A stretch of DNA of 64,000 nt, from contig CM026551.1 of the NCBI GenBank assembly GCA_015143295.1, positions 14,123,827 to 14,187,826 on the forward strand, given 5' to 3'. A program made the position numbers and the translations under genes. Source of the stretch: Tetracentron sinense (Eukaryota; Streptophyta; Magnoliopsida; Trochodendrales; Trochodendraceae). The notes below the pieces were generated by a model. That model saw only the letters and a program-made list of their open reading frames with translations, was not told the DNA's origin and did no database searches. Every line of letters begins with the position of its first letter. Within the stretch, counting starts at the first letter, position 1. Positions 36,569-62,530 of the stretch are shown here, one piece after another.

Positions 36569-39500
36569 CTACTCCACTTCAGCCAGATAATCATCAATTT
36601 CAGCTGGGGTCAGTACTCTGCAACAAAACAAGCACACCAAAACTTTAGTTTTAAATTCGGGTACAGTACCTGAAACTCATCTCCAGGGGTAAATTTCCAG
36701 CCGAAGAAGTTGGAACCACCGTTTCATGGGCAACTAGGGGTATCTTTTGTGTGTGTGTGGTTGGGACCCGGGGGGTAAACGGCACCTAGGTGGAATCTCA
36801 TATGTCAAAACTTTGCCAGATCAAGTAATCATGGGCAACATAACAATTGCCTTCTGGATGGTGAAAGAAAATAAGAATGCCGTAAAAGGTTGACAAATAA
36901 GGAAGATGATTGTGTGGACTTCTGAAAAATGAAAAATCTCTTATTTGGAACCAATCCTCTGGTGGGTCCAGATGGCCAAAACATAGGCAACATATCATGA
37001 AAATGTGCTTAAATACCGACACCAACTCCTATCACACAGATCAGACATGACATTCAAAATCAATATAGCATGTTATAACAAGCATAAAAAAATTAAATAG
37101 TTTAGTTACAACTTTAAGAAATACGGGGATTGATCCAGGATTTTAACAATGTTCAAGGTCCAATTGTATATCATAGGAAAATGATCAGGTAACAACTATA
37201 TAGATAAGGGAAGAGAAAACTTGCCTGAATTTTTTGTCCGTACTGATTATCCCAATCTCAATGTTTTTAGCTGAGATTTGTCCTTCAAATCTATAACAAA
37301 TATGCAGAGGTAACTCATCAGATAACTAAAGAAACCAAATTAAATATCCAATAACTAGGAATGCTCAGGCCAGTAGGACGGGAAGAAGCCATTCTCCCTG
37401 CCTAGGCGAAAGTGTGGCATACATGCATGTGGTGCAGAAACACTGCATGGAAGCCCCAATAAAAAGACAAAATTAATCCTTAATAATTATTTTGGTCCCT
37501 TCGCTATATTCCTCTGACCGTCCAAAAGAATGCAATGTATTCCAGTTGGATCACATTTTGGGCTAGGAGATCTATCAGGTGCGACTCAATTGAATGATAG
37601 ACCTCCAATCCCTGTACATGTGTCATGTATGCCACACAGTACAGCAGAAATGAAGCATCTTCGCATCCCCCCTTTGTACTGAGTGTTTTTCATCCACTAA
37701 CATCCAAAGCAAACATTTTAGGAATTATATACCCCTCCTTCAATGTCAAAATCGCCGTGTGGACAGCATCATCAAGCTCCATGTCGTCGGTGTATCTAAT
37801 GGAAAGAAAAGCACAATCAACTTACTCTTTAAGTCATGAAGTGTAGAAAAGGACAAGTCCAAGAATTAAAGAAAGTGATGTCATCCAACAGAAGTTACTA
37901 ACGAAATTTCAAAATAGAAAGAAAAAGAAAAATGAAATACAAAGAAATGCACATATAGTTAAGTTGCAGCTCTTGAGAGTACAAACTAAATATAACCTAC
38001 CAAGTACCAACCTAGGTTGTTTCTAAAGCTGAGAAACGAGATAATCAGAAACCTTGAGGTGACCAATTGGCTTAATTCGCTCCAACAATATATAAAGTTT
38101 TCACCACAAATTCGCAAACCAAATAATATATCATCATCATGATCAAAAGCGTAGTTGTTAAAGGCGACGCCTCAGGTGGTCGCCTAGGTGACCAGGCGCA
38201 CTACTGGGCTCTGGCGACCAGCAGGTTGTCATTATTAAAAATATGATATATGTAATATTATTATTGTTTAAAGGTTTAAATTTTATTTTATTTGAATATG
38301 AGTTTAGTCAACAAAAAAGCATGCTATTGTATATATTCCTCATGTCTTCTATCATATAATATATTAGAGTTTTTATATCTAACAAAAAGAGGGTTTGCAG
38401 ATCAAAGAAAAAAAGTTAGAGATGAACAATGTCAAGTATGTTTCCCTCGTGTTAACTTGTCATCTCTTTTGCTCAATGGGTGGACTCTCCCTCCCTCTCT
38501 CTCTCTCTCTCTCTCTTTGTGGGTGGTCATATGGTCCTCTTTGTTTTTTGCATGGTTGTTAAAGGCGTTGCCTAGGCAACCAAGGCATAGCTAGACTCAG
38601 ATAGCCCAATGCTCTCATAAACTCATCTTTAAAGGGGTTTTTAATAATTTAAATAAGTTGAGTCCCAAAATTATATATATTTTACTTATTATATAATTTT
38701 TATTATCTTTATTTGGTATAATCGAGAAGAAGAAGAAGAAACAAAGAGAAAAGAAGAGTAAGAAATACGACCTCTCCCTTTTTCTCCTCTTATCTCTATA
38801 TCTCTTCCCTTGTTCAATAGTCACATTGATGTCGGGCTATTATTTATTTTATATTAATCTTGCTCTCTCTCTCACTCTCTCGTGTTAAGTTGTCGATAAT
38901 TCACTATACCTTTTTTCTATTTTCTATCCCTCACAATCCCTCCTCCCCCTTTCGATAGTCATTGTAGATTGTTTTTTTGTTATATTTTTTTTTCCCAACG
39001 CTTGAAATCCTTCTTTCTTATTCATAAAAATGTCTTCAAAAATGGTTCTATTAAACTTCATCTTGACAATGGAGATTTTGCAATTTATATGAATTACAGA
39101 ACCCCTTATTCAAAGAAATACAGCATACATGGATCTCATATTGGGGGTAGGACTTTTGTTGCAAAGAGTTCGTAAGGCGACGCCTCGGGTACCTTAGGCT
39201 ACCGCCTCAGGCATCAGTGGGGTGTGTCACCTCAAGTCGCCTTGACAACTATGATCAAAAGGTTTTCCTTAGATCTTTGCACAAAATAGTTCACATTCTC
39301 TTACTAGAACAATCCAAGAGTGGTTTTCCCCCCTTCAACCTAGAAATATGGGAAATCAACACATCCAAATTTCTTTTCAGTTCCAGATTGTTCTCCGAGC
39401 CTTAACCTGAAATAACAATTTTCCTTTGATGTCACATAAATAACCGGTTCCATAGGAGTACTCATCAAAAGGCAAGACTAGAAAATTCTCTAATACTGGT

Positions 39501-42500
39501 TTTCTTTACTTCAAAAGGGCTTTCAGATGTCATCAAAATTGGTTTCCAAAGCAGTACTCATCAAAATGCAAGACCAGAAACTTCTATCACTTGTTTTCTT
39601 TTCTTCAAATGGCTTTCAGATGGATTAGGTTCATGTCAAAACCAAAAATAATAATTTTCAAATGAATATGAAATATGTTTTTTTTAATCGATAATCATGA
39701 TGAGCATAAATAATCAAAATAGAGCTACAAAAGGAAGATTGAATAAATAAAAGTGTTTACAAGAGCGTAAACTCGAGAATAGAAAAAACAAACAAAGTAA
39801 AAAAGTAAACAGAAGCATAATTAGATTCCCTTGTGCTAAGAGAAGTCATAAAAGGTCAAACCAACAAAGCTCTAAGATCCGCCCCATCATGCTGAATGGA
39901 TGCCCATTCTAAAACCATTAAACGAGTACGAGAGCGAGAGCGAATGCGAGAAGAGACGGGAGAATCCTTGAAAATTCTCTTGTTTCTCTCTTTTCATATC
40001 ACTCATGATAGAGTCTCCAAGAAGAATCGACCAAATAGTCTTCCACGCATTATCCTCACTTAACAGAGACCAACAAGATAAAAAAATTGTGAAAGGAAGA
40101 AGAGAAAACCTATTCCACACCTAATCGGGATAGAAAATACCCGCAAGAAGGCAATGCAAAAGTAAGCGATCTACCGTCTCTTCCGCTTGAAGGCACAAGA
40201 AACAATAGTTAACTAACTCTATTTTTTAAGTGATTACAAGTAAGAATCTTATTCAATGACGCATTCCATACGAAGAAAGATACCGTTGAAGGAAATATTT
40301 CAATTAGTCCATATTTTGTACAGATGGGATCCATATTTTGTTAGTCCTCACTTTGCACTAGAACATTAAAGAGTATCAATTTGTCCAAAAAATTTCAGGT
40401 CGAACTGTTTAGAATGGAAACCCAACAACATCATGCATGGGCATGACAATTAGTTCCATCGTTTTTTTCCAAAAAGAAGATCATTTAATTACATTTTATA
40501 TTATCTGGTAACTTTTAGTTTTATAAGTGGAACCGACAATATTAAACTGTAAGGATGTAATAATGGGAATCTACAGACGAGTTCACTGATATGTTAAAAT
40601 ATGATTGCGTCACAACAGATTTGAGTGATCCAACTAACAATGTCTGACTATTGGGGAAGACACCACCATAGTTGTCAAGGCAACCAAACGACTTGAGGCA
40701 ATAGACCCCATGGACGCTTGAGTCGGTAGCCTGAGGCGCTCGAGGCGTCGCCTGATGAACTTCTTGTTGTAGAAATTCCCCCTAATATGAGATCTATGTA
40801 TGATGCATTTTCTTTTATAAGAGGCCCTATATTCATATAAATTACACCATTGTCAGGATGCACTTTAATAGAACCTTCATTAAAGACAGTTCTAAGAATA
40901 ATAAATTGGGATTTCAAGTGTTGGAAAAAAATGGAATAAAAATTAAGTCTAGAATAACTACTGAAAGAGAAGAGAGAGGGATTGTGAGGGATAAAGCATA
41001 GACAGCCAAACAGGAAAGACAGAGAGAGGAAGGCGAGGAGAGGAGAGGAAAGAGAATATAAGACTGAATGAAAAGTAGAAAATAACCTCTTAGTCAAATG
41101 TGACGTTAAACAGGCGAGAAAGAAGAGGGGTGGAGAGGAAGATGTCATACCTATTACTTTTATTTCTTTCTTTTCCTCGATTTACTCAAGATAAGTAATA
41201 AAAATAATATTGATAAGTAAAATATATAACTATAGGATCTGCACTTACTTAAATTATAAAAGACCCCTTTAAATAAGTTTATGAGAGTTTGGAGAGGCCT
41301 ATAAAAGACCCCTTTAAATAAGTTTATGAGAGTTTGGAGGGGCATAGAAGGAATTTTGGGCATTTAAAGGCTCTTAATTTGTTATTGGGTCATCTAAGCT
41401 AGCTGTAATTTAACAATCATTGTAAAAAAACAAATGGGGACTATATGGTCCACTCAGAGGGAGAGACCAATTTGGTTCACTCATTGAGAGCGAGAACAAG
41501 TTAACGTGAGAGAAACATAATTAACACTGTTCGTCTCTTCTTTCTTCTTCTATCTACAAACTTTTTTTTGTTGGATATACAAATCTTAATATATTATATT
41601 ATAAAAGACATGAGAAGTATATAAAATAGTATATGTTTTTCTTTACCGAACTATAATATTCAAATTAAATAAATTTGTATATCCTTAAACAATAATAATA
41701 TTATATATGTCAGATTTTTAATAATAACCGCCTGAGGCGGCCAGTCGCCTGAGCCCAGCAAAGCGCCTGATCGCCTAGGTGACCGCCTGAGGCGACGCCT
41801 TTAACAACTATGGACACCACAAGGGTAGAGAGAACTTCCCCTTGGTCAACTCTAGCAGGGGACAATTGCACACTATTTGTTAAAAGTAGCCTCATTTACT
41901 ACCTATTTGTAGCGCTTAATCGCCAAGACGGGAAACAAAATTTAAAGCATAATTATCTCTTAATGTCAACCACAAATAGTTGGGACAAGGAACTGATGAA
42001 GAACAAAAAGAGACAATCCATGGATTGCACTACAGATTATTTCAACTGTCAAACGAAGTGTTATTGGATGGACTCATAAAAAAGATATCTCGCAGTAAGG
42101 ATAGAATTAATAAAATTAACCCCGCTAAAGCACTGCAAATTATATCACAAGTCAAAAGAATTTCCCAATGTGAATTTGACAACCCTACAATCTAGTAAAA
42201 AAAAAACTTAACAAGGTTTCCTTTGTCAATGATAATACAAAGTCAAATTATGGAAAGGGTTGCTAAATAAAGTCACTTTAGAATGTTGTTAGCAGATGAA
42301 TTGGGTTTAAGTACCTCTTTTCAAGAAATGTCTTCGCATTGGAGACGTTTTTCCCCATTGCTGAAGCTTTCCATGAGAAGTATGAACCTGATGGGTCCAC
42401 CTAAAAGCAAAATGAAATCTGAAAGCATTAACTGAAGTTCAAAGGTTCATAATTTTGCCCGATGAAACGTGCATTATATAATTGAGTTACATATAACAGC

Positions 42501-45500
42501 TATCAAAGTTATGCAATGGCCATATCAAACCCCATTCAATGGGTACCAAAAGTAGAAGAAACTCTTTTACTTAGTACAGATACAAATACAACAAGATTAC
42601 AAGTAAATAAATACATCCACTCCAAAAGAGATAGCACGTGCTTACATCCATCGTTAAATTTGTAAAATGGCTAAAGACATAAATAAGTGATTTGTAGAAT
42701 ATGGAAAAATAAGAGAATCCAGTAATTTTTATTTAATTTTACTTTTCACATTAAATTTTCAACAACTCGCACCTTTTCTATGTGAATTATGGATTGAGCC
42801 ATAGTTTTAAACTTCTGTGTTGAATTGATTTATTTCTGTAGAGATAAGTATGTTCCCCAAGATGTACTTAACCAAATAAGTGTTGCAAAGAGGTACAGCC
42901 TGTTTCAGGCATGTCTGGGAACCATAGTTGAAAATGCAATAGCTAAAAAGGCATAGAACATGTTAACTTTAGCATGTGATTATTCGATGGTTCAGAAGCT
43001 AGGATGCAAACTCACAAATACCCAGATACTAACATACCCACCAAATAAAAATTCTAGCCCATGACAAAAAGAAGGTAATCTAGCCAAAACCAGTTAATAA
43101 TGTCAATATCAAGCTTCAAAACACAAACTTAAGTCAATAGTAAAGCAAGTTCAACAATTTACCATCCAAAAAAAACAAGTTCAACACCACATCAGGATTC
43201 GAAGTAAGTACCTGATACAATTGTGGACCATTGTCATCAAACCCCGCAACCAGCAGCGAAACTCCAAAGGGCCTTACACCCCTAGCAGAAGAAAGAAGAA
43301 ACTATAATTCAAAGAATAAAGCTCTGCCAACATATGTATATGGTCAAAATTCACACTTAATTCATGCTCATGGACCCAATTGAAGTTGATGCGAAACAAG
43401 AAAATTCACAACTCAATCCATGTTCATGCCCCAATTCAAGTTGATGCGAAACAAGGTCAAGCACTCAATTCAGGTTCTTCAAGTTTAGAAAACTAGCAGA
43501 CTGTAGTCTCCCGTTTCAACCTTCTCAAGCAGCCAACAGAGTACTTAACAATTCACATACAGGCTTTTGGATACTCAAATCTGGTTTTCTTGAGGTACTC
43601 GTCATGCTATCAGTTTTGGAAGAACACCAAGTTACCCCTTCTAACTCTTGCCAAGTGTTAACATGATTGCTTCAAGCATGCTAGCTTCTTCTTCTCCTGG
43701 CTGGGTAAACAGTAGGTTTGCAAATATACTTGTTCTAACAGGTAAGAGTTTCCTTTTGAAAATGACAGTGGATTAAATTTGATAGCAAATAAATTAAGGG
43801 CATCTCTGCTTGGTAGCAGACAAACCCTTGGATCATAATGAGCATCGTATGGTGCTATTTTGGTCCCAGGCATGATATTTGGACTTCTCTACCTTTCTAT
43901 TTACACCCAATAAAGTAAAGGTAGTTAAGAAAATATTGAAATTATAGGGTATTTTAGCCTTTTGTTTAAAAGAAAAGATGTATGTGGTATAAAACCCACT
44001 AGGGCTGCAGTATTTCGGGATTATGCCACTGTTTTATTTTTTATGAGATAAAAAAAATCTCTTCTTCTCTCTATAAGTTCTTGTGTCACATATCATTCAC
44101 TCTTTTCCTTCCCTTTGATAATTTTTCTTTTGTAGGGATTTTTGTTTGCATCATTTTGGTACCAGAGCAAGTTCCGACATCTGGCAACTAAATGCTTAAA
44201 ATATTAAAATTATAGAGTATTTTAGCCTTTTGTTAAGAAAGATGTAAGTGGTATAAAACCCACTAGGGCTGCAATATTTCAGGATTATGGCACTGGTTTA
44301 TTTTTTATGAGATAAAAAAAAAAAAGAGTCTATTCTTCTCTCTATAAGTTCATGTTGTCTGGTATCATTCCGACCCTTTTCCTTCCCTTGATAATTTTTC
44401 TTTTGTTGCGTTTTTTGTTTGCATCATTTTGGTACCAGAGCAAGTTCCGTAAACTAAAGGATTAAATTGTAAAGATCCACATAGAGGTGATTAGCTTCTG
44501 GAAGTGTTTGCCGGACATATGCAGGTATTTCAGAAGTCTGGCCGGATTCAGTACCCTAAACCCTAAAAACATCTAAATTTCTTGGCTAAGGATAGGGACT
44601 CCTACCTAAACCCTTTTGCAGTTGTGGGTTTAGCAACTACCATAAGTTCATATAGCTACCATCTCCACTGATGGGAACTTCGGGGTTTATGCTTCCAGAA
44701 GGCTTAACGGTCAAGCAAGGTTTCTTGTATGAAGAGCTTAGCTAAGAAAATCTGAGACCGGAAAATCTATGTGATTTCTGAAAGAAGCAGAAAATGGTAT
44801 TACAAACAACTGATAGTTTCTTACAAAGACAACTTCCCCTTTTATAGAAGGGTGAAAACTATAGACAGACTCAAGGAAATTTCGAGGACAATTATCAGAG
44901 GCAGGACAAGACAGAAAAAATTGAGCTGGTAACTGGTGAGGTACAATTATTATAACTTTATGAGTTAGCAATTGTACTATTGTTTAGCTAGTGGGGAGCA
45001 GAGGTCCAATCAGCTTTCAACTCATCACTTCTGCCACTACGAACACATTCCCACTGTCGGGTTGGTGTGTCACTAGACCTGTATTCAAGCTGTGCGTGAC
45101 CAAGCTTGATTCAAGCTCAAATATTCAGGCTTGAGCTTGGCTTCAACAAGCTTGCTCGATTTGTTCTTCTTCTTCTGTTGTTAGGTTGTTTGATTTGCAT
45201 CAAGCATCTACCAGCAAAGAATAATGCTACTGGACTTGGAGTTGAAAAGTGTGCACACTGATGTGGTGGAAATTTATGAATTGACAGCTACTTGTCACGG
45301 AAGTTCTTTCCCATGACTTAGACCGTGTGGCACTAGTCCTACGACCCCTCGTGGATGAGTACCTAATTCTCGTCTCTAAGAAATTTGAACATAAAAGAGT
45401 GAAAAGCGCACAAGAGAACACTAAGGAGCTTTCGAAGAATACTTTGTATTGAACCAAAGAATGCTTACAAGTTTTGTTCCCCCGGGTGAAAGAATGCTTA

Positions 45501-48500
45501 AAGTTGCGGAATGCATTTACAAATGAGGGGCTTACACATTCATATAAACATCACATGAATATTCTAGATTTCTACAATTCCCCCCCCCCCCCCCCCCTCC
45601 CAATGTACCTAGATATTTCTATAAAATTTCTCGATAGAATATCCAAGAGATATTTATTTCTGATTGGTAAGAATATCCAATGGATATTCAGTGTTTAGAT
45701 ACATCCTACTTCTATATAATTTCAGGATATTCCAAAGTCTTCTGCTCTTTTTTACAAGCTTCTACAATAATCTAGATTTCACCAAATCTTCTTCTATATA
45801 CAATATAATATACAGGACATTAGTGACAGTTCAATGACTCTTAGTACTATATATAATACCCACCAAGTGTTCGCGAAAACGTTCAGGATAAGCATTCCAT
45901 GACACTCTCCCCCACCTAACTTGGCGACATCCTCGTCGCATTTTCTTCAAGGAACTTCCATATCTCCTTTCATCCCATAGTAGCTCACGTGGAGATTCCT
46001 CTATGTCACTTATTCAAATCTTCAATAATAGGCCTGAGACAGCTCGCGTGGCTGAAAAGGTATTGGACAGGGAGACTTTAATCCGAGACTGCTTTGATGT
46101 ACCACTCTAGATGTTTCAACCATGCGCTCGGGCATCTCTTGGTCCCTTCTTCTCGTTCGAGACAACAACTGGGTTTGGTTTTCATCCATCTATGAGCAGG
46201 GCCGGATCTATTGTTTTGACCAATGTTGAGTTATTCATTCACCGCCTAAATACGGGGGAATCGTGATCGATCCCACTTTCCTTCCATCCCATGCCAGCGT
46301 GATGACCCCCATCTATATCCAATAGTTAAAACCCACACCAGCAGCATCTCACCCATCATTATGAGTTCTTTCTAACCCTTTGGTAATAGGAAAGGATCTT
46401 TCGTACTTTTATGCCAACCCCTCATGTTCCCCCAAATGTTGGGGTCAATGCTTCACCCTTATTAAGTCAGCTTCCTTGTATTCCATTAGTCGTCTTCTCA
46501 TATTCACTCGTTTCCTCTACATTTTGTAGTCGTGTCGATGTTGGTGTGTATTGCTAATGGATTTCTTTTCTCCCTTTTGGAGAGTTCTAGGGCCAACAAC
46601 ATCTTCGTGCCAATTTTGGTCCCCCGTACCAATGGGACCAATGCATGGAGATCCCTCCTCCATGATGCACAAGGAGTTGACAAATGGTATAGGTACCACT
46701 TTTACCGTCCCCAAGAACTCCATCCCTAAAATGACTTGGTAGTCATTCATTCCAATGATGGAAGGTCCACATTTCCCTTCCAGTCAACAATGTGCAGCTC
46801 TACTCCCCAAGCTGCACCATGGATGGCTTTGGCTGATGAGTTGGCAGCTTTAAGCCACCCCTTCTCTTTAGGGGAAATTTGGCATCATTCATGGAGAACA
46901 ATTCTTTGTTCTGTTTCCAGAATCGTATTTGGCATCGTTCATTTCCGTAAAGTTTTATAAGATCATTCCGTTTCTATAGGTGTTTTTTCAAAACCAAAAA
47001 AAGGCATTCCGTGGAACGATGAGCATTGCATTAAAACCTCTCTTCAGTTACCAAAAAAAAGAAATCATGAAACTCTCACCTCTCCCACTCTTCCGACAGC
47101 AGCAATGACGGCAAGGTATTCCTTTCCCCTTTCTGTCGCTGCTTTCTCTATCCACCCTTGCTCTGCCCCCTCAATTAGGGCTGTCAATCTGGCCCTTTGA
47201 TGAGGGGGGCCGACCCTACCCGACCCTAAAATAGAGGGCTTTTTTTTTCTTTAAAAGGCCCTAGGGCCGAGCCTAGCCCAATTTTCGAAGGCCCTCTTAC
47301 TAAAGGGCCAGGTTTGGTAAGAACACGGCTTGGCCCGGCCCTGCCCTGCCCGACCCTCCATTCTATATGTTATACCATATATAATATAATAATTTAAGGG
47401 ATTAAGCCTTGATTACAATGTGTATATATAATACTTTAGTGTAAGTATATTTCTAAAATCTTTCTAATATAAGTAACTTGTAATATATTTTTTTTAATCT
47501 AATAGAGGATAAGATTTGTTGTGTGTATGTGTAACAAACTAATAGTGTAGTCTCTTTCTAGAATATTTTAACGTCACCACTTGTAAGTTGTAAAGTTTTT
47601 TTTTAATATAAAAGTACTAATACTAACAATTTAACGGTAATAATAGGGGAGCGTATTAATACTAACAATCTAACAGTACTAAAACTCCATCATATTGCTC
47701 TTTGAGTTGTGCATTGTTGGTCACAAGTCCGAATAAAGGAGGAGGGTTGTATATCAAGTTGACAATCAATGTAGAAAATATCGCTAAAATATGATATAGT
47801 TTTTTTATTCTTTAGGCCCTGGCCCGAACCTGACTCTTGAGGGTAGGGCTTGAGCCTAGCCAATTCAGGCCCTTCAAGGGCAAAGGCTTTACCCCAATGA
47901 ATGAGGGTCGGGCCCGGTAAGACCTAAGCACTGCTCTAGCTCGGCCCTTTGACAGCCCTACCCTCAATCAAGCTAGTCCCCTCTCCCTCTATGCAACTCC
48001 CTATCTCGAGCAGCCCCCTTTCTCCCTCTCTACAATCTCTCTTTGGTGTCAAAGATTCCAAGTCAAACCCTAGATCTTCGAAGGCTGAGGCCTGGAATCT
48101 TTGCCGTAAATTTCTCCCACGGCTGTTATTGTATGCCTTTGTAATGTTTTCCGCCAATTTTTGTTCAAAACCCATTGTTGTCGGTCATTCTAGTTTCTTT
48201 GCCCAAGGGAGAAATATCTTTAATGGTGGTCGACGGGAGTTGAAGCTCAATTAGGAACGGGAATTGATGATTTCTAGCGTCATCAAATCGAAAATTTGAG
48301 GTTTAGTTTCTACTTTAAAATAATCATTTCGAGTATCATAGAAAGGGATCGAATTGGGCAGGAACTTGGAGAAATCATTGTCATCTTGTTCATTCAAGTT
48401 CAAGTAATCAGTGGATTGTAATTTCGGGCTTGGGAACCTATGATTTAGACGTTGATGACTGAAAAGCAATTTCGGGGCTTGGAAACCCTAGTTATATATG

Positions 48501-51500: not shown

Positions 51501-54500
51501 CATTAGGTACTAGCAAGAAATTGAATATTTATTTTCTCACAAAAATGTCCAAAAAAATATACTTTCATTTGATTCAGATGTTTGTAATTTTATCAAAAAA
51601 ACATTTCCATTTCTCAATGAAAATATTCATTTCCATTTTCTGATTTAAATACAAGTTCTTCTCCATTTTCCAATTCAAATACATATTCTTCAATTTTTCT
51701 TTACTTGAACTTTTTCCTAGAGTTTTGAAGTAAAATCCAAGAAAAGAGATTCCAACTAATCACTTCCAAACTTTTGAAATCGTATGATATCATAAAACCT
51801 AGTGGCACTTATGTTTAAGAGATCTTGAAGAGAATTTATCTACTGAAACTAAATTCTACCACTAGATTCACAAACAATAGTTAAATCACAGATTAGTGAC
51901 GTCTTAAGAAGTATTAAATTAACTTTTACAAAAAAATCATAACAGGTAAGAGAAAAATGAAGATATGCATAGGAAGTAAAATTGTACTTTGTATAATCGG
52001 TGATACTGTTCTGCTTGCTTCCTACTTTTCCGAACCAAAACTCGAGAATCAGGACCCATCCCACTGCGTGAGAGAAGTCAATAATAACATTAAAAAATTG
52101 ATATTTCAAAGAATTAGAAATGGAATGCAAGATGGGAAAGAACAATAACCATGAGGATAAATACTGCGCAAAACAGGATGAAGTTGTGTATGTGATGGAT
52201 ACAAAAAAAGCTCCATGTCACCATATAGAAAGAAATACACATCTATCAAAACTCATCAGATATACCTCATAATAAATAAAAAAACTGATCAAGTGATTGC
52301 TTTCTTCAATGTGACAAGACAACTTAGACATGGATCACACCTAATGTAGTATTTAGTCAGTCAAGCATTCACCTCTTATGGTTCAGAGTTTCATTTAGGC
52401 AGCAAGACAGACTTCTTTTCTCCCTTATTTCATTTTCATCCCACATAACAAGTAGACTCCAGATTAATATAAAGGATCAACACATCGGAATAGAGGATAA
52501 AAACAAAGTGTTCCCCCTAGCTTAGGCCATAGAAGTAGTAGCATGCAAGCAAGGTCCGCGAAGTAGGACCCACATTTCAATGGGTCCCATCAAGGAAATC
52601 TACAAGCATAATCAGTTGAAATGAGTGAAATCATCCGATATATTCTATCTGTTGGATTATTCAGCAAAAATCCCCACTTTGAAGCTAATGAGCTTACAGA
52701 ACTCCTTTTTGACATTCAATATCGCTTTCCAAAACCTGAGTAGAACTATCCAATAATGTGGCATCCCTTGTGGAGCTTCTAAGCATTTATATATAGAATG
52801 TGTGCCCAAACAAGCATCTCTAATTGCAAGCCTCCAAGGCAGTCTTTCAAATTTCAACGAAATTTAAAATATGTGATTCCTGTTTCCGTTTCAATTGATT
52901 TTAATTTTCAACATTTCAAATTTTTGACCAATTTCTGTCAACATTTCCATTATTTGGACAAAATTTAAAGATTTTTTCTCAATTTTAACCATGACAAAAA
53001 ATTATGCCAAAAGCAAGATTTAAAACCTTGTTGCAAGGGCCAGCCGAACTCCCCGAGTGAAAATTGATTGAGATGGTTTGGAAAAAAAATTGAGAAAATT
53101 TGGATATGTTTGACGAAGAATGTGACAACACTTGTGAGAAAGACCACATTCATGAAAGTTGAAGGCTATAAAAGTAAGGGAAAGGCTGAAAAGGACATGG
53201 ATGGAAATGATAGGAAAATTTTGGTAAAGCACGCTCAATCAAATATATGGCTCCAGAATTAATAAGACTTAAATGGTGGAACAGAATTCTTGTTGCTAAC
53301 TCCAAATCAGGGTTACCTAGTTCGATGTGTACTAGAGTGAACCGCGAACTGGTTCGTGAAATTGAGCAAACCACGTGTTGTTCCAAACAGTCTTGGTTCA
53401 CTGAATTTTGTTTTCAAGTTCACTGATTTTTTTCTTTAGGATTGGTGAATTTATAGTTTGGGTTTGACAAATTTTTCTTTTCAGTTTGCGAACCGCTAAT
53501 AAAAACACATTTTTGTGGTTTTTCAAAATAAGTACTTATAATATATTTATTTACATGCTTAAAATATATATTTACATGCTTAAATAAGCGAACCAAGATA
53601 GTGAACTAAATTAAAGAACCTAAGCGAACCGAGAAACGAATTGTCTCATCCTATCCCCATAGTTACCAAGTACGGATACGTGTACAGGTATAATACGACA
53701 ATAATCCGTTCGGGAAGTACGGGTGTTATACGGCAAAAGAACAGGAAAATTAAATAATAATTAATAATTATAAATAAATAAAAATCATGATATTAACTAA
53801 TAAAGATCATATAATACGGAATATACATTTAACACGGTAAAAGTATGGTAAAAATATGCATATTGTACGTGTTTAATACGTAATTCGTGTATTAAACGAG
53901 TATTATACGACGATACGGGTATTAAAATATAATTCGTAATACAACAAAAGTACGGAATTTTAAACAACGACCTCCCCTAAAAGTATTATTCGAATACTAT
54001 GCAGGTATAAAACAGATGTTTGGTAACTATGCCTATCCCTGTTGAACCAGTTTCACTCTAGAGTAGCAAACTGCAAACCCAAATTCGAACCAAGTGAACC
54101 GACAAACCAAGTAACATTGCTCCAAATAGTTTGGACAAGACACTGACAAAGAGGACATTGGGGACAATATATTAACATTTTCCTAATGTTATTTAGTCTT
54201 TCTTTTTGTAAGTTGATGTTTACAAAACAAAGACATTTTTAAATTATATTTACATTGTTTTTATTTTTTTATGAAAATTATTCTAGGTACATACCCTTGA
54301 TATTTTTTATATGTATCATTTGAATGATGATATGGGGCCAGGCTCAAGGAAAACACCTTGAGGCTTAAAACCTATGAGGCTAACACCTCAAATTGTGAGG
54401 CCCACTTTTATGGCTGAGGAATGTGCCTCATACATTAATCAAAAATAGGGCTCAAACCATAAAATTAATACTTTAATATTAAATTATAAGGTGTGTGCCT

Positions 54501-57500
54501 CATAAACTCTTATCGATAAAAAAACAATAAATTGTTTTCTTTTTTCATTTTGTTATTAGTCTAAATTAACACTTAACCAACATATTTAAGCTTTTGCAAA
54601 TCGTGTTGCGTATATTTCACTCTAATTTTCATAGTAGACATTGCAAAGATTTGGAGTCATTGTCTTAATATATGTAGTTGGCGCCTAGTCTATAATTGTT
54701 TGTTGGAACCCAAAATCAACCATGTGATTGACATAATCCCTTTTTCAATATATATAAGAACACAAAAGGTAAATCTAAATTTTAGGTTTTCTTGCCTCTT
54801 GAATTTAATTTTTATGGCTAAATAATTTACATAGTATTACATTATACATATGTGAGTGCATACACACATATATTTATTTATATATTACATTTAATTATTT
54901 TTTTATTATTATTTTGCAAAATTTTATTTGTTTGTTAAAATGAGGTAGCATAAGTCTTTCTTATGAGGCTTAAAAACCTCCCGCCTCCAGGATTACACCT
55001 CACACATCTTGAGGTCCTAACTCCACGCCCTATGACTTCGCTTTTTAAAAAATTAATGGGGCCATATTGACGATAAACGTCATTATCGAATATTGAGGAG
55101 TCTTGGTACACCCCTTGATATGGATACTTTGAGGTTTAAACTTGTAGAGCCCCGGATCTCACAATCACTGTTCATGTGAATAGTGTTGTGAATACAGTTT
55201 TTCAAGGCCTAAAGCCTTAATGTAATTGTGGTTTCATATTTTAAAAAAAAATGAGGTATTTTGAATGAATTAAAGTATGTATAGAAATTATTTAGGGGTG
55301 TTTGGGATGGAGGAACAAGAGTATAGATACTCTTAAGTGTAAAAAAAAAAAAAGTGATTGTTTTCACATACCCTCAACTTTAGGGAACCCTAGTTTGGTG
55401 ACCGTTGATCGGAATCAAATGATTCTTCAGCCATTAGAAAGATATTGAAACTCTCTTCGATGTTCATGTTTCACACTTTTCCAGATTTTGACTCGAAGTT
55501 AGCTTAAATGTTGGTTTTTCGAAGACTGGTCTGCTGTAATTTGTCTCTGGAACAATCAACTTTAGGGTCAATTTAGACCATGAATAATTCAGAAGTAAGA
55601 TTTGTCCATTAGACGTAAATTTGATCCCCCTTGAATGACGAGTCCAACGCAAGTTGAATGTACCAGCTCATCGACGAGTCTAATCGGGGGCCAACAACTC
55701 GTCGACGAATTGCCCCAAAAACGCCCAAAACAGGGTCACCGACCTTGGAGATATTTTTTAAGGGCTTTTAAAGGTTTTGACAACCTTTGGCCTATAAATA
55801 AAACTCAAATTTGTGGGTTTGAGTTTACCAAACCCAAAGAATCATTTTGGAAAGAGAATTGAAAGAGAAGAAAAGAAAGCTCAAGTCTTGCTTGGGTGCT
55901 CTGTTTTGGTTCGTGGGTTCGAATTTTCAACCAAAGAGAAGCCTAAACTTCACTTCTCAACCAATCTAAAGCACCTAGATCAAAGGGCTTTGATCTAGAA
56001 AAGGTAGATACTTTCTTCGAGCTTTTAATTTCATACTTCCCAATTGAAAAACCATGATGAAAACTTATATATTTTGAGGTGATGTGTTGATGCTTTAAAC
56101 CAAAGAATAAAAAGTGGTTATGTGATGAATTCAAGTTTATGACGTGTATTTGATTTCGAAATGAACTGAAATGATGAAATGAAATAAAATAGAAAAGCAT
56201 GAGTTAATGGTTAAGTGTTTTCAATTGTCTATATGTTATTCACAATTGCCACATGAACACGGAAGTGCATGATTCGAGTTTTGTATATGCATATGGACCT
56301 GAAAAGTGAAAGTAGAAGTATTGAACAAATTAAGATGTTATTGGGATGAGGTTAATGGACTCTACTCCTTGAGGGTAGGCATTAATTCTCGATTCCAAGG
56401 AAATATAAAAAGTGCAATTGGAAGAATGATAGTGGTATCTTATCAGTTAGATAAGGCAGTATCATTTGATCCAAAGGAATGCATCTGGAAGGATGATAGT
56501 GGTATCTTATCAGTCAAATAAGGCAGTATCGTCTGGATCCAAAAGAATGATGTGCAAAGATACCAACGGGGAGGTTGGTTTTCGGATGTTAGTATGCTAT
56601 GACCAGGGACGGCTACTAGACATACCCAGTTATGTGATGCTAATGGACTCTACTCCTTGAGGATAGGCATTAGTAAAGCTCTCATAAAAGTTGTGCAAAT
56701 CAAGTGAAATGTTTTGAGTGCAAGTGTAAATGAAATGAAAAGAAGCTATGAGAATATGTTCTGAATGATAAGAAGCAAAGAAGTATATGTTCTGTAAAGT
56801 ACTCACGTGTATTTGAAAAGAGGTTTTTTGCATTTGTTTGCATGTGTATTTGATAAATTGTTCATATGAAAGCATGTGTGTGTTCTACATGTGATATGAC
56901 ATTACAATCTAGTGGTTGGTATACGCGGAATATTCAATACTCAGCCGAACTATTACTTCGGCAGGTCCATTCAATATTTGTGGCGATCTTCCTCAGGAGC
57001 TGTGGGTTGAGGAAGAATATGTTGAGGAGGAGCCGACTCCGGAGGGTCTTCAGGAGCAACAGAGGGTCTTTGCTAGGTGGCCCGATAATGAGTGATGAAA
57101 GCAAGAGATTTGCATATATACTTTTTGATGAGTGAGGAAGTTCACTCTTTACTTTAGTTTGTTTATAAACTTGGGCATACAGTATGTATAGAAGAACTAT
57201 TGTATTCTGCTTCCGCTATAGTATATCTGATGTGTTCTACAGGATGATTTGGTAATGAATTCACGACTCAAAAGTATCGTAACTCTTAAGGGGTATTTTG
57301 GGCCGTGACAAAACCATGCATAGAACTTATCAATTGAAATAATAACACTAAAATACTATATGAAACTGTTTATTTAGTATTTTTTTTTATTCAGTCAATA
57401 CAATTAAAGCCAACCATGAGCAGATATTTTCAAATGTTAAAACAGACTTGATAGAGTTCTCTTAAAGTCACCCCATTAAATCTTCCTAACATTGCTACTG

Positions 57501-60500
57501 CTAGTCAAAAACTAAATTTCTCCGTCACCTAAATGCATAAACAAGGGCTTCTTGCCTTCTTTTGGTGGAACCCGACGATTTCATAACTTCAGAGTGCAGA
57601 GAAAGATTTCATTACACAATAGACATGTAACTTATACAAAATCAATGTGAAACAACACCCCAGTTCTATGCATGATTTAAAAATTAAAGTATCCATATCA
57701 GGCTCAAATCTAAGCTTACTTTGCAAATTCTTTTACTTAACTTGGTTTATCATTTCAGCGGCTCAGTCCTAGTACTAAGGCATTATATTTATATACATAA
57801 TCACATTTCTTTCACATTAAAGCTAAACATGCAATCTTCCTGATAAAGGTTACATAAATTTTGTAAACAAACTGAAGTTATAAGAAAATAAATTGGGTGC
57901 CTAGAGTCAAGGCCCCTCTTTCGCTTTATTGACAGTGCACTCTTCTATTATTCCTTTGAATTGGGGCCCACTTTGAAAATTATTAATATCAGACATGAGT
58001 AAGACCCATCCATGAGGAGCCTATACTTGAGAGGCCATAGCATGCAGAGGTGTTCTCACCAGAAAACTACGAGAAATCGAAAATGCATTGATAGCCAAAT
58101 TCAGAGGTCTGATTATTGTAATTATTATTGGCTCAATGTCAGATGCAATATGGAACCTACTGTGTAATATAAGCAATAAAAATTAACCTTCCTAAATACC
58201 AACAGAAGCACAAAAGACAACCTGTATACAACTCCAATGTTTGGTGTCAAAAGCTGAATCTTTTGAACCTGCAATTAAAGAATTTCAAATTTTACAAACA
58301 GCCCATATTATGTGGTCTGAACTGAAATAGTAGAAGGAAAAAAGATAAAAACAGGATGCTTCTGGAAGTTACTCCTACTTAGTCAAAGATGGAAACGATG
58401 AGTGTGTAATGCAAGGAGATGTTTGAAATGGAACAAATGAACTTCGCAAGGAACTTGAAATGCTTAGCTAGTTAGCTCTGAAAAAACCAGAAATTTCTGT
58501 TTCACTCCATTCTCTTATCAAATGAGATGAAGAAATTTACCCATAAACGGAAAACATTATATCAAAATACAATTGTAAAATTCAGGCCAGATTCATAAGT
58601 AGGTAAACTACAGGCATTTCATGCAGAAGCTATGCAGCTAAAGTGGTTTTCATCAGCTAAGATTTTTCATGCAAAACGTGGTAAAACTATCAAAACTCAT
58701 CTATGAGCCATATACATGAGCATCATTATCATAGTTGTATAATTGTGCACACACTACACATAAAGAATACTATACTCATGCCCATAGTCCAAATGCACCA
58801 GCCAAAGTTCTTTCAAGAACTTCATAGGCAAATGCATCAAGTTTGTCACATCTAGTAGAAATCAGATGCAGTTTCCTGTAATTAGGAGCAAGCAGAAACT
58901 TGAAGAAAGGATAGTGTAGTGTATATTGAGTTGAGACTTCAAATTTATGGGTATGGGAGAAATAAATAAGTCTAAGGAACTATTGGTGATCCATTAAATA
59001 CTATAAAGCATGGTTCAAAAACCTGAAAACTCGACTCGAAAGTTAGACGGGTCGAGTAACTTGGAAAACTCGAAAAAAATTGACTTGGGCAATTACCAAT
59101 TTCTTAGCATTTTATCCAAGATTGAACCACAAATAACTTGAAAAATTGATTAAAAGAACCCAAAGTAGGCTGATTTTGCAACCTCAAACCTAAAAATCAG
59201 ATTTAACAGAACTCATAGTAGGTTAGCTTTGCAACTCCCAAAAAATATGATGCAAAAAAAGTGTAGTGTTTAAGTTTATGTTTTCAAAAAATATGAAAAT
59301 GATTAAAACACCATTTTGTGGCTCGATAGTCTAGCAAGTCAAAAAACTCAGCTCGACCGAGTCACCCGAATAACTTGCTAAATAGTGTCTCCTTCGAGTT
59401 TTGAGGCAACTCAACTAGAAACTCAATCGAGTCAAGAAACTTGGCTGAGTACGCAAGTGACTTGCTTGCTGAGTTTTAGAACTATGCTATAAAGTAACGA
59501 GCATAGAAAGAAAATGACAATTGCCCTACAAGAGGTTATTGTGAATCAATAAGGAAACAAACAAGAAAAACATTAATCATAGCTAGTGCTATGACTAAAA
59601 TAATAATGAAATAAAGAGGAAAAAATATCATAGATAGTGTTAAATGACAGAACATAGCCAGTACTAAATGCCAGAACTAGTAAACCTGTGCTCAAATAAA
59701 CTACTGAATAAACTATTTACTTACAGATGCTTCATCAACCAAGATGGATGGTAGTTTCTTCTCAGTTGCAATAACAACACCATTAGCAGCTGCAAATATC
59801 AGCCAAAAAACATATAAATGGCAATAATATATAAACTTCAAACACTAGATGATTTAGGAAGTCATAGTAAAATTAGCTGCATTTTTCTATCAGTAATCAG
59901 AGACATATTATATAAATCAAAGACGCAAGAAAGAATGTACATATTGATTTCACAAGAGAGTAAACTCAAACTAAGTGCGCATCAAAGCAAAACAAAGCAA
60001 AAACAATACATAACAAAAAAGGCCTACCCAACCGTTACAATGAAATATGGAAAGAGTGCCCAACTAGTGCTACAATAACTTTCTAGTAAGCCAACCAAGT
60101 CCTCCACCTCCCTTTGAATGGAACACCAAAATAGTACTAGTTGCCTAACCCTCAGGCATAGAGGGGTTAAGTAGGTAGAGGAATTTAGAACACTTCCATG
60201 TTTCTTTCTTTCCACAAGACTCCACGCAATGGGCCTCCTAAAGACAAGACCAAATAACAGTTCAAGAGTCCTCCAAACTCACTATGAACCAACAAGTTAA
60301 GATGTACCAAAAAGAGGAAGGGAAGATCCAACACATCCCCAACCATGTAATAAAAATCGCCGAAACCAATATGAAACGGACGATACGTATAGGTATCGGT
60401 ATCCCCTTGTACAATATTTATACCGATACAAAACGAGCGATACGTATCTTTTACTAATTATGTATGTTTTAATCAAATGTATATGTATGTTTTTATTAAA

Positions 60501-61610
60501 TGTACAATTATAATTGTGTTTGCTACTTTGTCTTTGAGTCGCCTTTCATGACTTTATAATTGGCAAATTTGATTCTTATAACTCATTTGATTTTTAAAAA
60601 AATTGATTTGATTTGTTTTTATTTTTTTAAGAAAAAGAACAAAAATTATACGTATCGTCCGAAACCGATACGTATAGGTTTTGGTTGGGACCAATACATT
60701 CCTCAAAACCGTATTTTTAATCCTTGTCCACAACTGAGAAAGGAAATTTCCCCCAAACAGTAGAAGCAAGGAACAATGCAAAAGCAAATGATCCACCAAC
60801 TCCTCCTCGAGATGGCACATATAAAAGCGATTCAATATCCTCCACCCTCTACTCTTCAAGTGGGGATCTTGTACATATAATCTCATGATATTATAGTTAA
60901 CAACTACTAATACATGTTCTTATCAATGCAAAACATTCAATAAGTGGGCGTAGGTAGATCTCTTAGACCAAAAACATTCTGATCAGATGATACTAATCAC
61001 ACAATAATAAATTTTTACCTAGATTAAGACCCTAATTACTTTTGTCCATCCAAAAGAGTATAGCTGGTTTAATGGTTAGTAATTAGGATCACCAAAAATA
61101 TCTGAATTTCTTCTTAATGGACCACTAATTGGACAGTCCAGAGTGCTAAGAACTCACAGCACTTATACATAAAGTACCATTATACTACAAGTATGATAGT
61201 TCCGTGACTATCCCCTGTTTCCCCCAATTCACCACTTGTTAATAAAGCACAAACAGTGACTTAAGGCAAATTACAGAAACTACCGCACATCTCGACACAT
61301 TCATGTTGATTCCCCAAATGGAAACAGATTTCTACTCAAACTAGGATGCATAAAAATATAGAAGATAATCACAGGTAGAGAGAGTGTTATTAATTTATAA
61401 TACCTTTGATCCCTAGAGATGTTTGGCCTGATCCAACAGCTGTTAGGGCATGTTCAATCTGTACGAGCTTCCCGGAAGGACTGTTTCATGGTAGATCATA
61501 GTAAGATAAATCAGAACATCATAAATAGGAGATACATATCATATGGATATACGGGGAGGGAGTCATTACCTGAAAGTGGTGAGAGAGAATGAGTACTGAC
61601 TATCTCCCAT
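36569..61610 (-). CDS. PAB1: 20S proteasome subunit alpha type-2
   Basis: Eleven coding exons join in frame to exactly 235 codons plus a stop, the length of Arabidopsis PAB1/PAB2: 61610-61570, 61480-61404, 59789-59725, 58268-58222, 52063-51988, 49856-49789, 43281-43212, 42400-42315, 37795-37733, 37290-37225 and 36617-36569. The start is [20 protein letters not shown], the N-terminal alpha-subunit signature that forms the gated ring. Further on are [71 protein letters not shown] and the end [13 protein letters not shown]. Alpha subunits are non-catalytic: they form the outer ring of the 20S core and bind the 19S regulator. Residue 83 is Ser where Phe or Tyr is usual. All splice sites are GT-AG except the last, which is GC-AG. 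Introns of 6.5, 6.2 and 4.5 kb are packed with transposable elements, yet no exon is damaged, so it is probably functional. Whether it is PAB1 or a paralogue cannot be told. Confidence 0.95.
36618..37224 (-). other. GC-AG intron, last intron of the proteasome alpha-2 gene
   Basis: Exon 10 ends TTCAG and the intron begins GCAAGT. It ends TTGCAG before AGTACTGACC. The coding frame (KKFR|VLTPAE) demands exactly these borders. GC donors in the context AG|GCAAGT are the main accepted non-canonical class in plants. Confidence 0.85.
38150..39253 (+). mobile_element. hAT-like MITE A, 1104 bp, in proteasome intron 9
   Basis: It starts CGTAGTTGTTAAAGGCGACG and ends, inverted, CATAGTTGTCAAGGCGACTT. It is flanked by the perfect 8-bp duplication ATCAAAAG (38142-38149 and 39254-39261). 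Subterminal GCCTCAGG and GTCGCC words occur in both orientations. A second start-like sequence (CATGGTTGTTAAAGGCGTTG) at about 38551 suggests a nested or rearranged copy. The interior near 39000-39170 is shared with MITE B. Confidence 0.9.
39677..40235 (-). pseudogene. LINE 3' remnant between two MITEs
   Basis: Minus-strand sequence from about 40235 reads as a zf-RVT-like segment ([20 protein letters not shown], then [12 protein letters not shown]). It runs on through CTTGTAAACACTTTTATTTA, a common plant L1 tail, to an A-run ending about 39677. It is broken and 5' truncated. Confidence 0.6.
40667..41812 (-). mobile_element. hAT-like MITE B, 1146 bp, opposite orientation to MITE A
   Basis: The ends are CATAGTTGTCAAGGCAACC and, inverted, CATAGTTGTTAAAGGCGTCG. 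They are flanked by the perfect 8-bp duplication GACACCAC (40659-40666 and 41813-41820). Read on the minus strand it lines up with MITE A, including the interior GGTTCTATTAAA and GACAATGG segment. It contains a local 48-bp direct duplication near 41255-41345. Confidence 0.9.
41821..43934. other. Proteasome gene introns without recognised repeats
   Basis: Apart from exons at 42315-42400 and 43212-43281, nothing is recognised. The sequence is AT-rich, as expected for plant introns. Confidence 0.4.
43935..44455 (+). mobile_element. Tandemly duplicated LTR end with a copia-type primer site
   Basis: Two direct copies of about 265 bp (about 43935-44197 and 44205-44455) share ATTTTAGCCTTTTGTT, GTGGTATAAAACCCACTAGG and a shared terminus GCATCA. 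Each is followed by TTTTGGTACCAGAGCAAG, close to the initiator tRNA-Met primer site of copia elements (TGGTATCAGAGC). It looks like the tail of an LTR plus primer site, duplicated. It is a fossil fragment with no coding region seen and is probably old. Confidence 0.5.
44456..45292. other. Proteasome intron 7, unassigned
   Basis: No gene is seen. The part at 45080-45150 is rich in CAAGCT/AGCTTG words and could be one end of a worn MITE. Confidence 0.35.
45293..45904 (-). repeat. LTR of the gypsy fragment, 612 bp
   Basis: It is bounded by TGTCATGG and CCGTGACA on the minus strand. It shares long stretches with 48650-49213 (for example GTACCTAGATATTT and GCACAAGAGAACACTAAGGA with small changes). 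A run of about 20 C near 45580 is specific to this copy. Confidence 0.75.
45293..46870 (-). mobile_element. Ty3/gypsy fragment: protease region, 3' tail and LTR
   Basis: On the minus strand there is a retropepsin-family segment at about 46750-46500 ([11 protein letters not shown]-like, then [11 protein letters not shown]). It is followed at about 45940-45905 by a tail ending in a purine tract (GGTGGGGGAGAG) and then an LTR at 45904-45293 that begins TGTCATGG and ends CCGTGACA. RT, RNase H and integrase are missing, so the element is a broken, internally deleted fossil. The left side is lost. A related LTR stands alone at 48650-49213. Confidence 0.65.
47176..47960 (+). mobile_element. hAT-like MITE, TAGGGCTGTCAA family, 785 bp
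   Basis: The ends TAGGGCTGTCAATCTGGCCC and GGCCCTTTGACAGCCCTA are inverted repeats. They are flanked by the perfect 8-bp duplication CCCTCAAT (47168-47175 and 47961-47968). GGGCC/GGCCC-rich subterminal zones flank an AT-rich core. The first eight bases match the MITE at 32049. Confidence 0.92.
47969..48649. other. Proteasome intron 7, unassigned
   Basis: CT-rich then mixed sequence, with no feature I can support. Together with 47050-47175 it was one continuous CT-rich stretch before the MITE at 47176 inserted. Confidence 0.35.
48650..49213 (-). repeat. Solo LTR of the same gypsy family, 564 bp
   Basis: It is homologous to the LTR at 45293-45904 in the same orientation, ending at CATGACA on the plus strand. 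No internal sequence lies on either side, so it is a solo LTR, the usual product of LTR-LTR recombination. No target duplication is evident, which suggests age. Confidence 0.7.
49214..49788. other. Proteasome intron 7, proximal part
   Basis: No repeat or RNA gene is recognised between the solo LTR and exon 6. Confidence 0.35.
50060..50725. repeat. Probable dispersed repeat with CGCCGA/GCCGAAACCG words
   Basis: It starts CATGGTTTAAAAACTCGCCG and ends near CAGCCGAAACCGATACG. Similar words occur in the element at 60345-60727. The ends do not form a clear inverted repeat, so this is probably a truncated MITE. It lies in proteasome intron 6. The remaining part of that intron, 50726-51987, shows nothing. 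Confidence 0.4.
52064..53299. other. Proteasome intron 5, unassigned part
   Basis: AT-rich intron sequence with no recognised repeat ends or exons. Confidence 0.35.
53308..54119 (+). mobile_element. hAT-like MITE (outer), interrupted by a second MITE
   Basis: The ends are CAGGGTTACCTAGTTCG and, inverted, CAATGTTACTTGGTTTG. They are flanked by the perfect 8-bp duplication CTCCAAAT (53300-53307 and 54120-54127). GCGAACC/GGTTCG words line both arms. Without the inner MITE it is about 430 bp. Confidence 0.9.
53658..54031 (+). mobile_element. hAT-like MITE (inner), CATAGTTACCAA family, 374 bp
   Basis: The ends are CATAGTTACCAAGTACGG and TGTTTGGTAACTATG. They are flanked by the perfect 8-bp duplication CCTATCCC (53650-53657 and 54032-54039). 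It belongs to the same family as 13535-13851. It is nested in the MITE at 53308-54119 and is therefore younger than it. Confidence 0.92.
54341..55056 (-). mobile_element. hAT-like MITE relative of the 17476 element, worn
   Basis: GGCTCAAGGAAAACACCTTG at the left matches the inverted right arm of the MITE at 17476-18363, and the right side shows CTCACACATCTTGAGG then CGCTTTTTAAAAA. An identical 8-mer, TGGGGCCA, lies at both edges (54333-54340 and 55057-55064) and may be the target duplication. The left terminus lacks about 50 bp relative to the other copy. Confidence 0.6.
55143..57310 (+). repeat. Solo LTR, Ty3/gypsy type, 2168 bp
   Basis: It begins TGTAGAGCCCCGGATCTC and ends GGGCCGTGACA. 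The flanking five bases are AAACT and AAACC, a near-match target duplication. A TATAAATA box lies at 55793-55800, giving a U3 of about 650 bp. The downstream part holds an imperfect direct repeat (GATAGTGGTATCTTATCAGT at about 56428 and 56493; GGACTCTACTCCTTGAGG at about 56357 and 56644). No internal element sequence adjoins it. The lineage is uncertain; the ends suit a chromovirus. Confidence 0.7.
57311..58221. other. Proteasome intron 5, exon-proximal part
   Basis: AT-rich, no feature recognised. Confidence 0.35.
59009..59486 (+). mobile_element. hAT-like MITE, CATGGTTCAAAAAC family, 478 bp
   Basis: The ends are CATGGTTCAAAAACCTG and CTGAGTTTTAGAACTATG. They are flanked by the perfect 8-bp duplication CTATAAAG (59001-59008 and 59487-59494). 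ACTCGA/TCGAGT words are dense in both arms. It lies in proteasome intron 4. Confidence 0.9.
60060..60886 (-). pseudogene. LINE 3' remnant split by a MITE
   Basis: Minus-strand translation from 60886 gives a zf-RVT motif ([19 protein letters not shown], then NFLSQLW). After an interruption at about 60345-60727 it resumes with the L1 tail [13 protein letters not shown] at about 60200. It is decayed and 5' truncated. It lies in proteasome intron 3, in the same orientation as the host gene. Confidence 0.65.
60345..60727 (+). mobile_element. MITE-like element with GCCGAAACC/ACGTATCG words
   Basis: The left side TAATAAAAATCGCCGAAACC and the inverted right side GGATTAAAAATACGGTTTTG are similar. Internal ACGTATCGTCC and GGACGATACGTAT are inverted. 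No target duplication was found, so the ends are approximate. It interrupts a LINE remnant. It is probably related to the repeat at 50060. Confidence 0.5.
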
Positions 61611-62434: not shown

Positions 62435-62530
62435 CTTTGGATCTGATCTTTCTTACTTGCAAAAAGAAAGGGATGTCTAAACATTAGGGTTTCCGTCTGA
62501 TGTTCGTCACTGCCTTGTCGAGGATGAAGG
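62435..62530 (-). other. Probable 5' non-coding exon of the proteasome alpha-2 gene
   Basis: On the minus strand an exon ends CCAAAG with a strong donor GTAAGC at 62434. The matching acceptor TTCAG lies at 61634, 23 bp before the ATG at 61610-61608. The resulting leader intron is 801 bp. The sequence GAAACCCTAATG upstream is typical of plant leaders. The start site is a guess. Leader introns often raise expression of housekeeping genes. Confidence 0.6.

What the first reader, a model, noticed from the sequence alone, without database searches (positions are those of the whole stretch)
36569..62530. A 705-nt proteasome alpha-2 coding sequence stretched over 25 kb by transposable elements, with every exon intact
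The eleven exons give exactly 235 residues with no stop or frame error, while single introns reach 6.5, 6.2 and 4.5 kb. Essentially all large introns hold LTR, LINE or MITE insertions. A core, dosage-sensitive subunit that tolerates this load says something about intron splicing capacity in this genome. Exon lengths and phases come from the sequence; functionality is inferred.
Basis: partly seen in the sequence, partly recalled or inferred. Interest (0 to 1): 0.75.

Follow-up and report, generated by a model that had tools for sequence, protein, structure and literature searches.

The report
Proteasome gene with transposon-swollen introns
This is an intact, apparently single-copy plant proteasome gene whose introns were lengthened by old transposable elements, which is not unusual for this genome or for plants with large introns.

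Summary
On the minus strand, 11 exons (61610 to 36569) join into 705 nt plus stop and give a 235-residue 20S alpha-2 subunit (PAB), 227/235 identical to spinach alpha-2. Introns total 24,334 bp; nine are GT-AG, one GC-AG. Dispersed repeats were found in all 6 introns over 1.4 kb and detected in none of the 4 shorter ones. Four insertions look hAT-like, with perfect 8-bp target duplications; a solo-LTR-like repeat, an LTR pair and a LINE remnant are also present. Assembly statistics match Tetracentron sinense. No second PAB copy was found.

PAB is among the longest genes sampled but not alone: a beta-6 locus spans at least 24.2 kb and a beta-1 locus at least 25.1 kb, and 2 of 21 chaperonin-family loci have longer minimum spans. 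Transposon-lengthened introns in expressed plant genes are well documented. Two points are useful: the gene clashes with the published 283-bp mean intron for this species, and LTR divergence of 0.25 predicts that intron 6 was expanded before the split from Trochodendron.

The parts
61570..61610 (-). exon 1 (start codon), 41 nt
61404..61480 (-). exon 2, 77 nt
59725..59789 (-). exon 3, 65 nt
58222..58268 (-). exon 4, 47 nt
51988..52063 (-). exon 5, 76 nt
49789..49856 (-). exon 6, 68 nt
43212..43281 (-). exon 7, 70 nt
42315..42400 (-). exon 8, 86 nt
37733..37795 (-). exon 9, 63 nt
37225..37290 (-). exon 10, 66 nt, followed by a GC donor (CAG|GCAAGT)
36569..36617 (-). exon 11 with stop TAG, 49 nt
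60341..60919 (-). intron 2: LINE remnant (weak zf-RVT fragment) with a ~380-bp dispersed repeat inserted in it (6 other matches listed); imperfect (7/8) target duplication read by eye
59009..59486 (-). intron 3: hAT-like element, 478 bp, perfect 8-bp duplication CTTTATAG
55143..57310 (-). intron 4: solo-LTR-like repeat, TG...CA ends, 5-bp flanks GGTTT/AGTTT (4 of 5)
54336..55058 (-). intron 4: further dispersed repeat; part also matches window 17508-17970
50067..50691 (-). intron 5: dispersed repeat, no target duplication found
45293..49213 (-). intron 6: LTR pair (79% identical over 538 aligned sites, K2P 0.25), purine-rich tract before the downstream LTR, same strand as the gene; flanking 5-bp duplication not found
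47176..47960 (-). intron 6: hAT-like element, 785 bp, nested between the two LTRs; perfect 8-bp duplication ATTGAGGG
40667..41812 (-). intron 8: hAT-like element, 1146 bp, perfect 8-bp duplication GTGGTGTC
38150..39253 (+). intron 8: second member of the same family, inverted relative to the first, 1104 bp, perfect 8-bp duplication CTTTTGAT

Best explanation
This is the working, apparently only, gene for the 20S proteasome alpha-2 subunit of Tetracentron sinense. Six of its ten introns carry separate, old, probably non-autonomous transposable-element insertions: hAT-like elements, LTR pieces and a LINE remnant. The insertions lie inside introns and leave the 5' and 3' splice sites in place, so the spliceosome can still remove them, and they drifted to fixation as they apparently did in other genes of this repeat-rich genome (shown: exons, splice sites, insertions with target duplications, no second copy found, loci of similar length; inferred: transcription, splicing, drift). 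Where the elements are methylated, read-through to the last exon probably relies on the conserved plant IBM2/EDM2/AIPP1 pathway that prevents premature polyadenylation in heterochromatic introns (inferred from rice and Arabidopsis papers, not tested here).
For: Intact 705-nt frame with GT-AG (9) or GC-AG (1) ends at all ten introns. 227/235 identity to spinach alpha-2, chain 7qve_i. No other PAB locus in two protein searches of the whole assembly: hits outside the window are 24-41% identical over 57-229 residues, or short pieces of 20-32 residues at 50-75%. Four insertions with perfect 8-bp duplications. Repeats found in 6 of 6 introns over 1.4 kb and detected in 0 of 4 shorter ones. Comparable length elsewhere: of 26 proteasome-family loci with two or more exon hits, 4 have minimum spans of 19.7-25.1 kb; fragments of two of them were identified as beta-6 and beta-1. 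11 of 21 multi-hit PF00118 (chaperonin-family) loci span at least 12 kb. The assembly matches the published T. sinense one: C1 64.6 Mb, C24 33.1 Mb, C25 only 21.7 kb, against 24 chromosomes of 33-65 Mb in the paper.
Against: No transcript evidence was available. About 53% of the intron sequence was not assigned to a repeat. PAB is in the upper tail of what I sampled: only 1 of 26 proteasome-family loci and 2 of 21 PF00118 loci have a longer minimum span, and relative to its short CDS (25,042/708, about 35-fold) it is at the stretched end; compact loci exist too. The published T. sinense annotation gives a mean intron of 283 bp (PMC7709256, passages), which at face value would make this gene an outlier; the sister species Trochodendron is reported at 2,308 bp (PMC6859433, passages). 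The IBM2/EDM2 step has no evidence from this genome (one search failed).
Confidence: 0.9

Rival explanations
1. The locus is a silent or decaying copy, and a compact functional PAB gene lies elsewhere or in unassembled sequence.
For: The published assembly captured 93.4% complete BUSCO genes, so a gene could be missing (PMC7709256). Two rounds of whole-genome duplication mean up to four copies once existed.
Against: No frame lesion, no broken splice site, and only 8 differences from spinach in 235 residues. Two whole-assembly searches found no other PAB, although each picked up 8 of the window's 11 exons as pieces of 25-38 residues, so a compact copy should have stood out.
Confidence: 0.04
2. 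The long introns are functional: intronic heterochromatin makes PAB output respond to the silencing state, as the methylated intron of IBM1 does in Arabidopsis.
For: The gene appears single-copy and carries several transposon pieces of kinds that plants usually methylate (recalled). Intronic heterochromatin controls transcript completion at many plant genes (PMC7145194, abstract and two sections read; PMC11265718, passages).
Against: No methylation or expression data. Unrelated genes of this genome reach similar lengths, so no PAB-specific role is called for. The LTR pair is old and degenerate.
Confidence: 0.05
3. The size is partly an assembly artefact (false joins inside introns).
For: The genome is a 2020 long-read assembly of a repeat-rich tree.
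Against: No N in the window. Four perfect target-site duplications. Intron 7 matches only itself in the genome. Similar sizes at independent loci and a 2.3-kb mean intron reported for the sister species.
Confidence: 0.02

Closest known systems
Heterochromatic-intron genes of rice and Arabidopsis (IBM2-dependent)
   Same: Intact genes carrying transposon-bearing long introns. In rice, 4,227 of 37,866 gene models have heterochromatic introns and many of them are transcribed (PMC7145194, section 6 read).
   Different: Methylation and IBM2 dependence are measured there; here only sequence is known.
Long-intron genes of Ginkgo and conifers
   Same: Exons conserved while introns grow by repeat insertion. 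Ginkgo's average intron is 7,884 bp, with 16,939 introns over 20 kb (PMC5118899, passages).
   Different: Ginkgo's genome is far larger and its repeats are reported as mostly LTR; in this gene hAT-like pieces are prominent.
Trochodendron aralioides genes (sister species)
   Same: Published mean intron of 2,308 bp (PMC6859433, passages) against 2,433 bp for the ten PAB introns.
   Different: The PAB orthologue there was not available to compare.

Membership tests
Plant 20S proteasome alpha-2 (PAB) | Full-length alpha-2 sequence | tested here: met
   235 aa; best PDB match spinach 7qve_i, E 4e-147, 227/235 identical; the next best, 5a0q_B, is named alpha type-2
Plant 20S proteasome alpha-2 (PAB) | Expressed and assembled into the 20S core | not testable with these tools
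   no RNA or protein data
hAT-type DNA transposons (five candidate insertions) | 8-bp target duplication and terminal inverted repeats (criterion recalled) | tested here: met
   4 of 5 candidates have perfect 8-bp duplications and roughly inverted ends (introns 3, 6, and two in intron 8); the fifth, in intron 2, is 7/8 when its ends are set by eye (at the ends used it does not match)
hAT-type DNA transposons (five candidate insertions) | mobilised by a hAT transposase | not tested
   no autonomous partner was sought
LTR retrotransposon (intron 6) | paired LTRs with TG...CA ends and a 5-bp target duplication | tested here: inconclusive
   LTR pair 79% identical with a purine tract; outer ends TG and CA, inner ends partly degraded; flanks TGGAA/AGTAG do not match
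IBM2-dependent heterochromatic-intron gene | methylated intron whose loss of IBM2 causes premature polyadenylation | not testable with these tools
   no methylome or mutant; a search for an EDM2 family failed because the accession I recalled is not in the library
Gene with introns unusually long for its genome | span beyond that of comparable genes in the same genome | tested here: not met
   beta-1 locus >=25.1 kb and beta-6 locus >=24.2 kb, two PF00118 loci 29.3 and 32.2 kb; PAB is nonetheless in the upper tail of both samples

The most novel reading that the evidence does not exclude
The only alpha-2 gene of this tree keeps transposon-filled introns whose silencing state gates how much full-length transcript is made. 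Proteasome assembly, which needs every subunit, would then be tied to the health of the plant's heterochromatin, as the methylated intron of IBM1 ties that gene to it in Arabidopsis.
Probability: 0.04. Interest if true: 0.6.

Novelty: new member of a known kind. Interest (0 to 1): 0.2.

Why it matters
As a single locus it adds little: introns of essential plant genes are known to absorb transposons. It has two practical uses. First, it is a clear case where gene callers working on a repeat-masked genome could split or lose a core gene, and it sits badly with the published 283-bp mean intron for this species. Second, the LTR pair inside intron 6 gives a dated, testable prediction about when introns grew in Trochodendrales.

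Tried and rejected
Considered and rejected: (1) Pseudogene. No lesion, and no compact copy found elsewhere. Residues that first looked odd against my recalled Arabidopsis protein (L67, S83) are also in spinach. (2) One large fold-back element in intron 8. The inverted arms are two separate insertions of one repeat family, each with its own duplication. (3) PAB as an outlier in its genome. Not borne out by proteasome and chaperonin-family spans, though it lies in the upper tail. (4) Coding transposons in the introns. Ten open stretches (of 209 of at least 45 aa in 36000-62600) were scanned against Pfam; one gave a weak zf-RVT match, three gave implausible weak matches and six gave none. ARAGORN found no tRNA in the window. 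A literature search for plant PAB gene structures gave nothing usable in the 10 papers listed of 20 (listing only); one for large introns in housekeeping genes returned 3 papers, of which one was used.

Limits. Spans are minima from exon hits grouped by distance (35 kb and 30 kb). PAB itself gives only one hit, so genes made of short exons are under-measured by that method. For one search I copied 93 of the 101 rows. The 8 left out were the single-exon chaperonin on C18, six lone hits, and one hit (C4:39617196) next to a kept hit. Some PF00118 loci may not be CCT genes (a few lie in open frames of about 750 codons). One search used all 72 rows. Repeat counts are lower bounds because 40 candidates were scored each time.
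Full report
WHAT IS THERE. A recalled alpha-2 query located the exons. After correction of my first boundaries, eleven minus-strand exons from 61610 to 36569 give exactly 705 coding nt plus TAG and 235 residues. Nine introns have GT-AG ends and intron 10 is GC-AG (CAG|GCAAGT). The protein is 227/235 identical to spinach 20S alpha-2, chain 7qve_i.

WHICH GENOME. The host assembly has 1.161 Gb in 1,479 contigs. Contig 1 is 64.56 Mb, contig 24 is 33.09 Mb and contig 25 is only 21.7 kb. The Tetracentron sinense paper reports 24 chromosomes of 33 to 65 Mb and a 1.17-Gb assembly (PMC7709256, passages). I take the species as T. sinense, by inference from these numbers; no label was given.

IS IT THE ONLY COPY? 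Two protein searches of the whole assembly, one with a recalled Arabidopsis-type protein and one with the window protein, found PAB only in the window. Hits elsewhere are 24-41% identical over 57-229 residues (other 20S subunits) or short pieces of 20-32 residues at 50-75% identity. Each search picked up 8 of the window's own 11 exons, as pieces of 25-38 residues, and missed the other three, so a compact copy should have scored far higher. The paper infers two whole-genome duplications, so other copies were presumably lost.

WHAT FILLS THE INTRONS. Searches of the own genome with intron sequence found dispersed repeats in all six introns longer than 1.4 kb (introns 2, 3, 4, 5, 6, 8; together 22,385 of 24,334 bp) and detected none in the four shorter ones (introns 1, 7, 9, 10). 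Intron 7 has a single match, itself. In one search the matches other than the query itself lie downstream of the stop codon, not in introns 9 or 10, with 40 of 85 candidates scored. Four elements have roughly inverted ends and perfect 8-bp target duplications: two in intron 8 (1,146 and 1,104 bp, same family, opposite orientation, 70% identical to each other), one in intron 6 (785 bp) and one in intron 3 (478 bp). The 8-bp duplication and the CATAGTTGT / TAGGGCTGTCA ends point to hAT-type elements; that assignment rests on recalled criteria. Intron 4 holds a 2,168-bp repeat with TG...CA ends and a 4-of-5 duplication, best read as a solo LTR. Intron 6 holds an LTR pair at 45293-49213 with a purine-rich tract before the downstream LTR; the LTRs agree at 79% of 538 aligned sites, K2P 0.25, but the flanks do not form a duplication. 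Intron 2 holds a LINE remnant (zf-RVT, E 4.2e-4, below the Pfam cut-off) with a further dispersed repeat inside it. Identified repeats add up to about 11.5 kb, 47% of intron sequence.

AGE. With the Trochodendrales rate of 3.25e-9 per site per year (PMC7709256, passages) the LTR pair dates to about 38 million years. Methylated elements mutate faster than synonymous sites (recalled), so this is an upper estimate. It is older than the published split from Trochodendron (30.7 million years), which gives a clean test.

IS IT UNUSUAL HERE? It is long, but not alone. The Pfam PF00227 search (72 hits; all grouped) gives 35 loci, 26 with two or more exon hits, all 26 with exons in the expected order. 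Four have minimum spans of 19.7, 20.2, 24.2 and 25.1 kb; one of the 26 exceeds PAB's 25,042 bp. Short stretches of two of these loci were translated and identified by sequence as beta-6 (best match 7qve_t, E 6.6e-45) and beta-1 (7qve_o, E 7.8e-35). Three loci that look like one other alpha-type subunit (31-36% identical to PAB) have apparently single introns of about 6.4, 8.9 and 10.6 kb, two of them larger than any in PAB. Among 21 PF00118 chaperonin-family loci with two or more hits, two have longer minimum spans than PAB (32.2 and 29.3 kb; the first rests on two hits far apart) and 11 reach 12 kb. Against this, compact loci exist too (for example 0.7-0.8 kb between hits), and relative to its short CDS PAB is at the stretched end of this small sample of two families.

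HOW IT WORKS. The simplest account is ordinary gene function. Insertions that fell inside introns and spared splice sites were tolerated and drifted to fixation, while the coding sequence stayed under purifying selection. In rice, over 10% of genes carry heterochromatic introns, many are transcribed, and completion of transcripts at a set of them depends on OsIBM2 (PMC7145194, abstract and sections 6 and 10 read). In Ginkgo, introns average 7,884 bp and 16,939 exceed 20 kb (PMC5118899, passages). [quoted passage not shown] Transcription and splicing of the PAB locus, and any role of IBM2/EDM2 in this tree, are inferred and were not tested.

A DISCREPANCY WORTH CHECKING. The T. [quoted passage not shown] 5.4 x 153 is 826, not 1,304, so the figures do not agree with one another. 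PAB's ten introns average 2,433 bp, and 19 intron estimates from adjacent exon hits in other proteasome loci average 2,639 bp. These 19 were picked by hand (two larger gaps whose hits overlap, 8.8 and 10.4 kb, were left out; one locus appears twice as near-identical contigs), and the method biases which introns are seen. The sister species is reported at 2,308 bp. The published mean intron is probably too low.

VERDICT.

Noticed in passing
window 36569-61610 and loci: The published mean intron length of Tetracentron sinense (283 bp) is hard to reconcile with PAB and other proteasome genes (means of about 2.4-2.6 kb here) and with the paper's own exon and CDS averages.
   Followed up: partly
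window 37219-37224 (intron 10 donor): Intron 10 uses a GC-AG splice pair in the context CAG|GCAAGT.
   Followed up: no
window 36039-36470: Short dispersed repeats downstream of the stop codon; the strand printed holds a GTTCGAGC stretch that looks tRNA-like, possibly a SINE.
   Followed up: no
window 61654-62434 (approximate): Likely 5' leader intron (donor CCAAAG|GTAAGC near 62435, acceptor CTCTCAG|TTTCTAC upstream of the ATG), by eye.
   Followed up: partly
window 6050-7371 and 8677-9311: Long tandem arrays of 38/77-bp, 44-bp and 11-bp units.
   Followed up: no
window 28826-31820: LINE-type open frames (endonuclease, reverse-transcriptase and zf-RVT-like by eye) in separate pieces.
   Followed up: no
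window 21528-24650: A 1,040-codon uninterrupted frame resembling a DYW-type pentatricopeptide repeat protein (by eye).
   Followed up: no
G000:C2 11071678-11086694 and 11138594-11155978: Two PF00118-family loci about 67 kb apart with nearly identical exon scores but different minimum spans (15.0 and 17.4 kb), so their introns appear to have changed since duplication.
   Followed up: no
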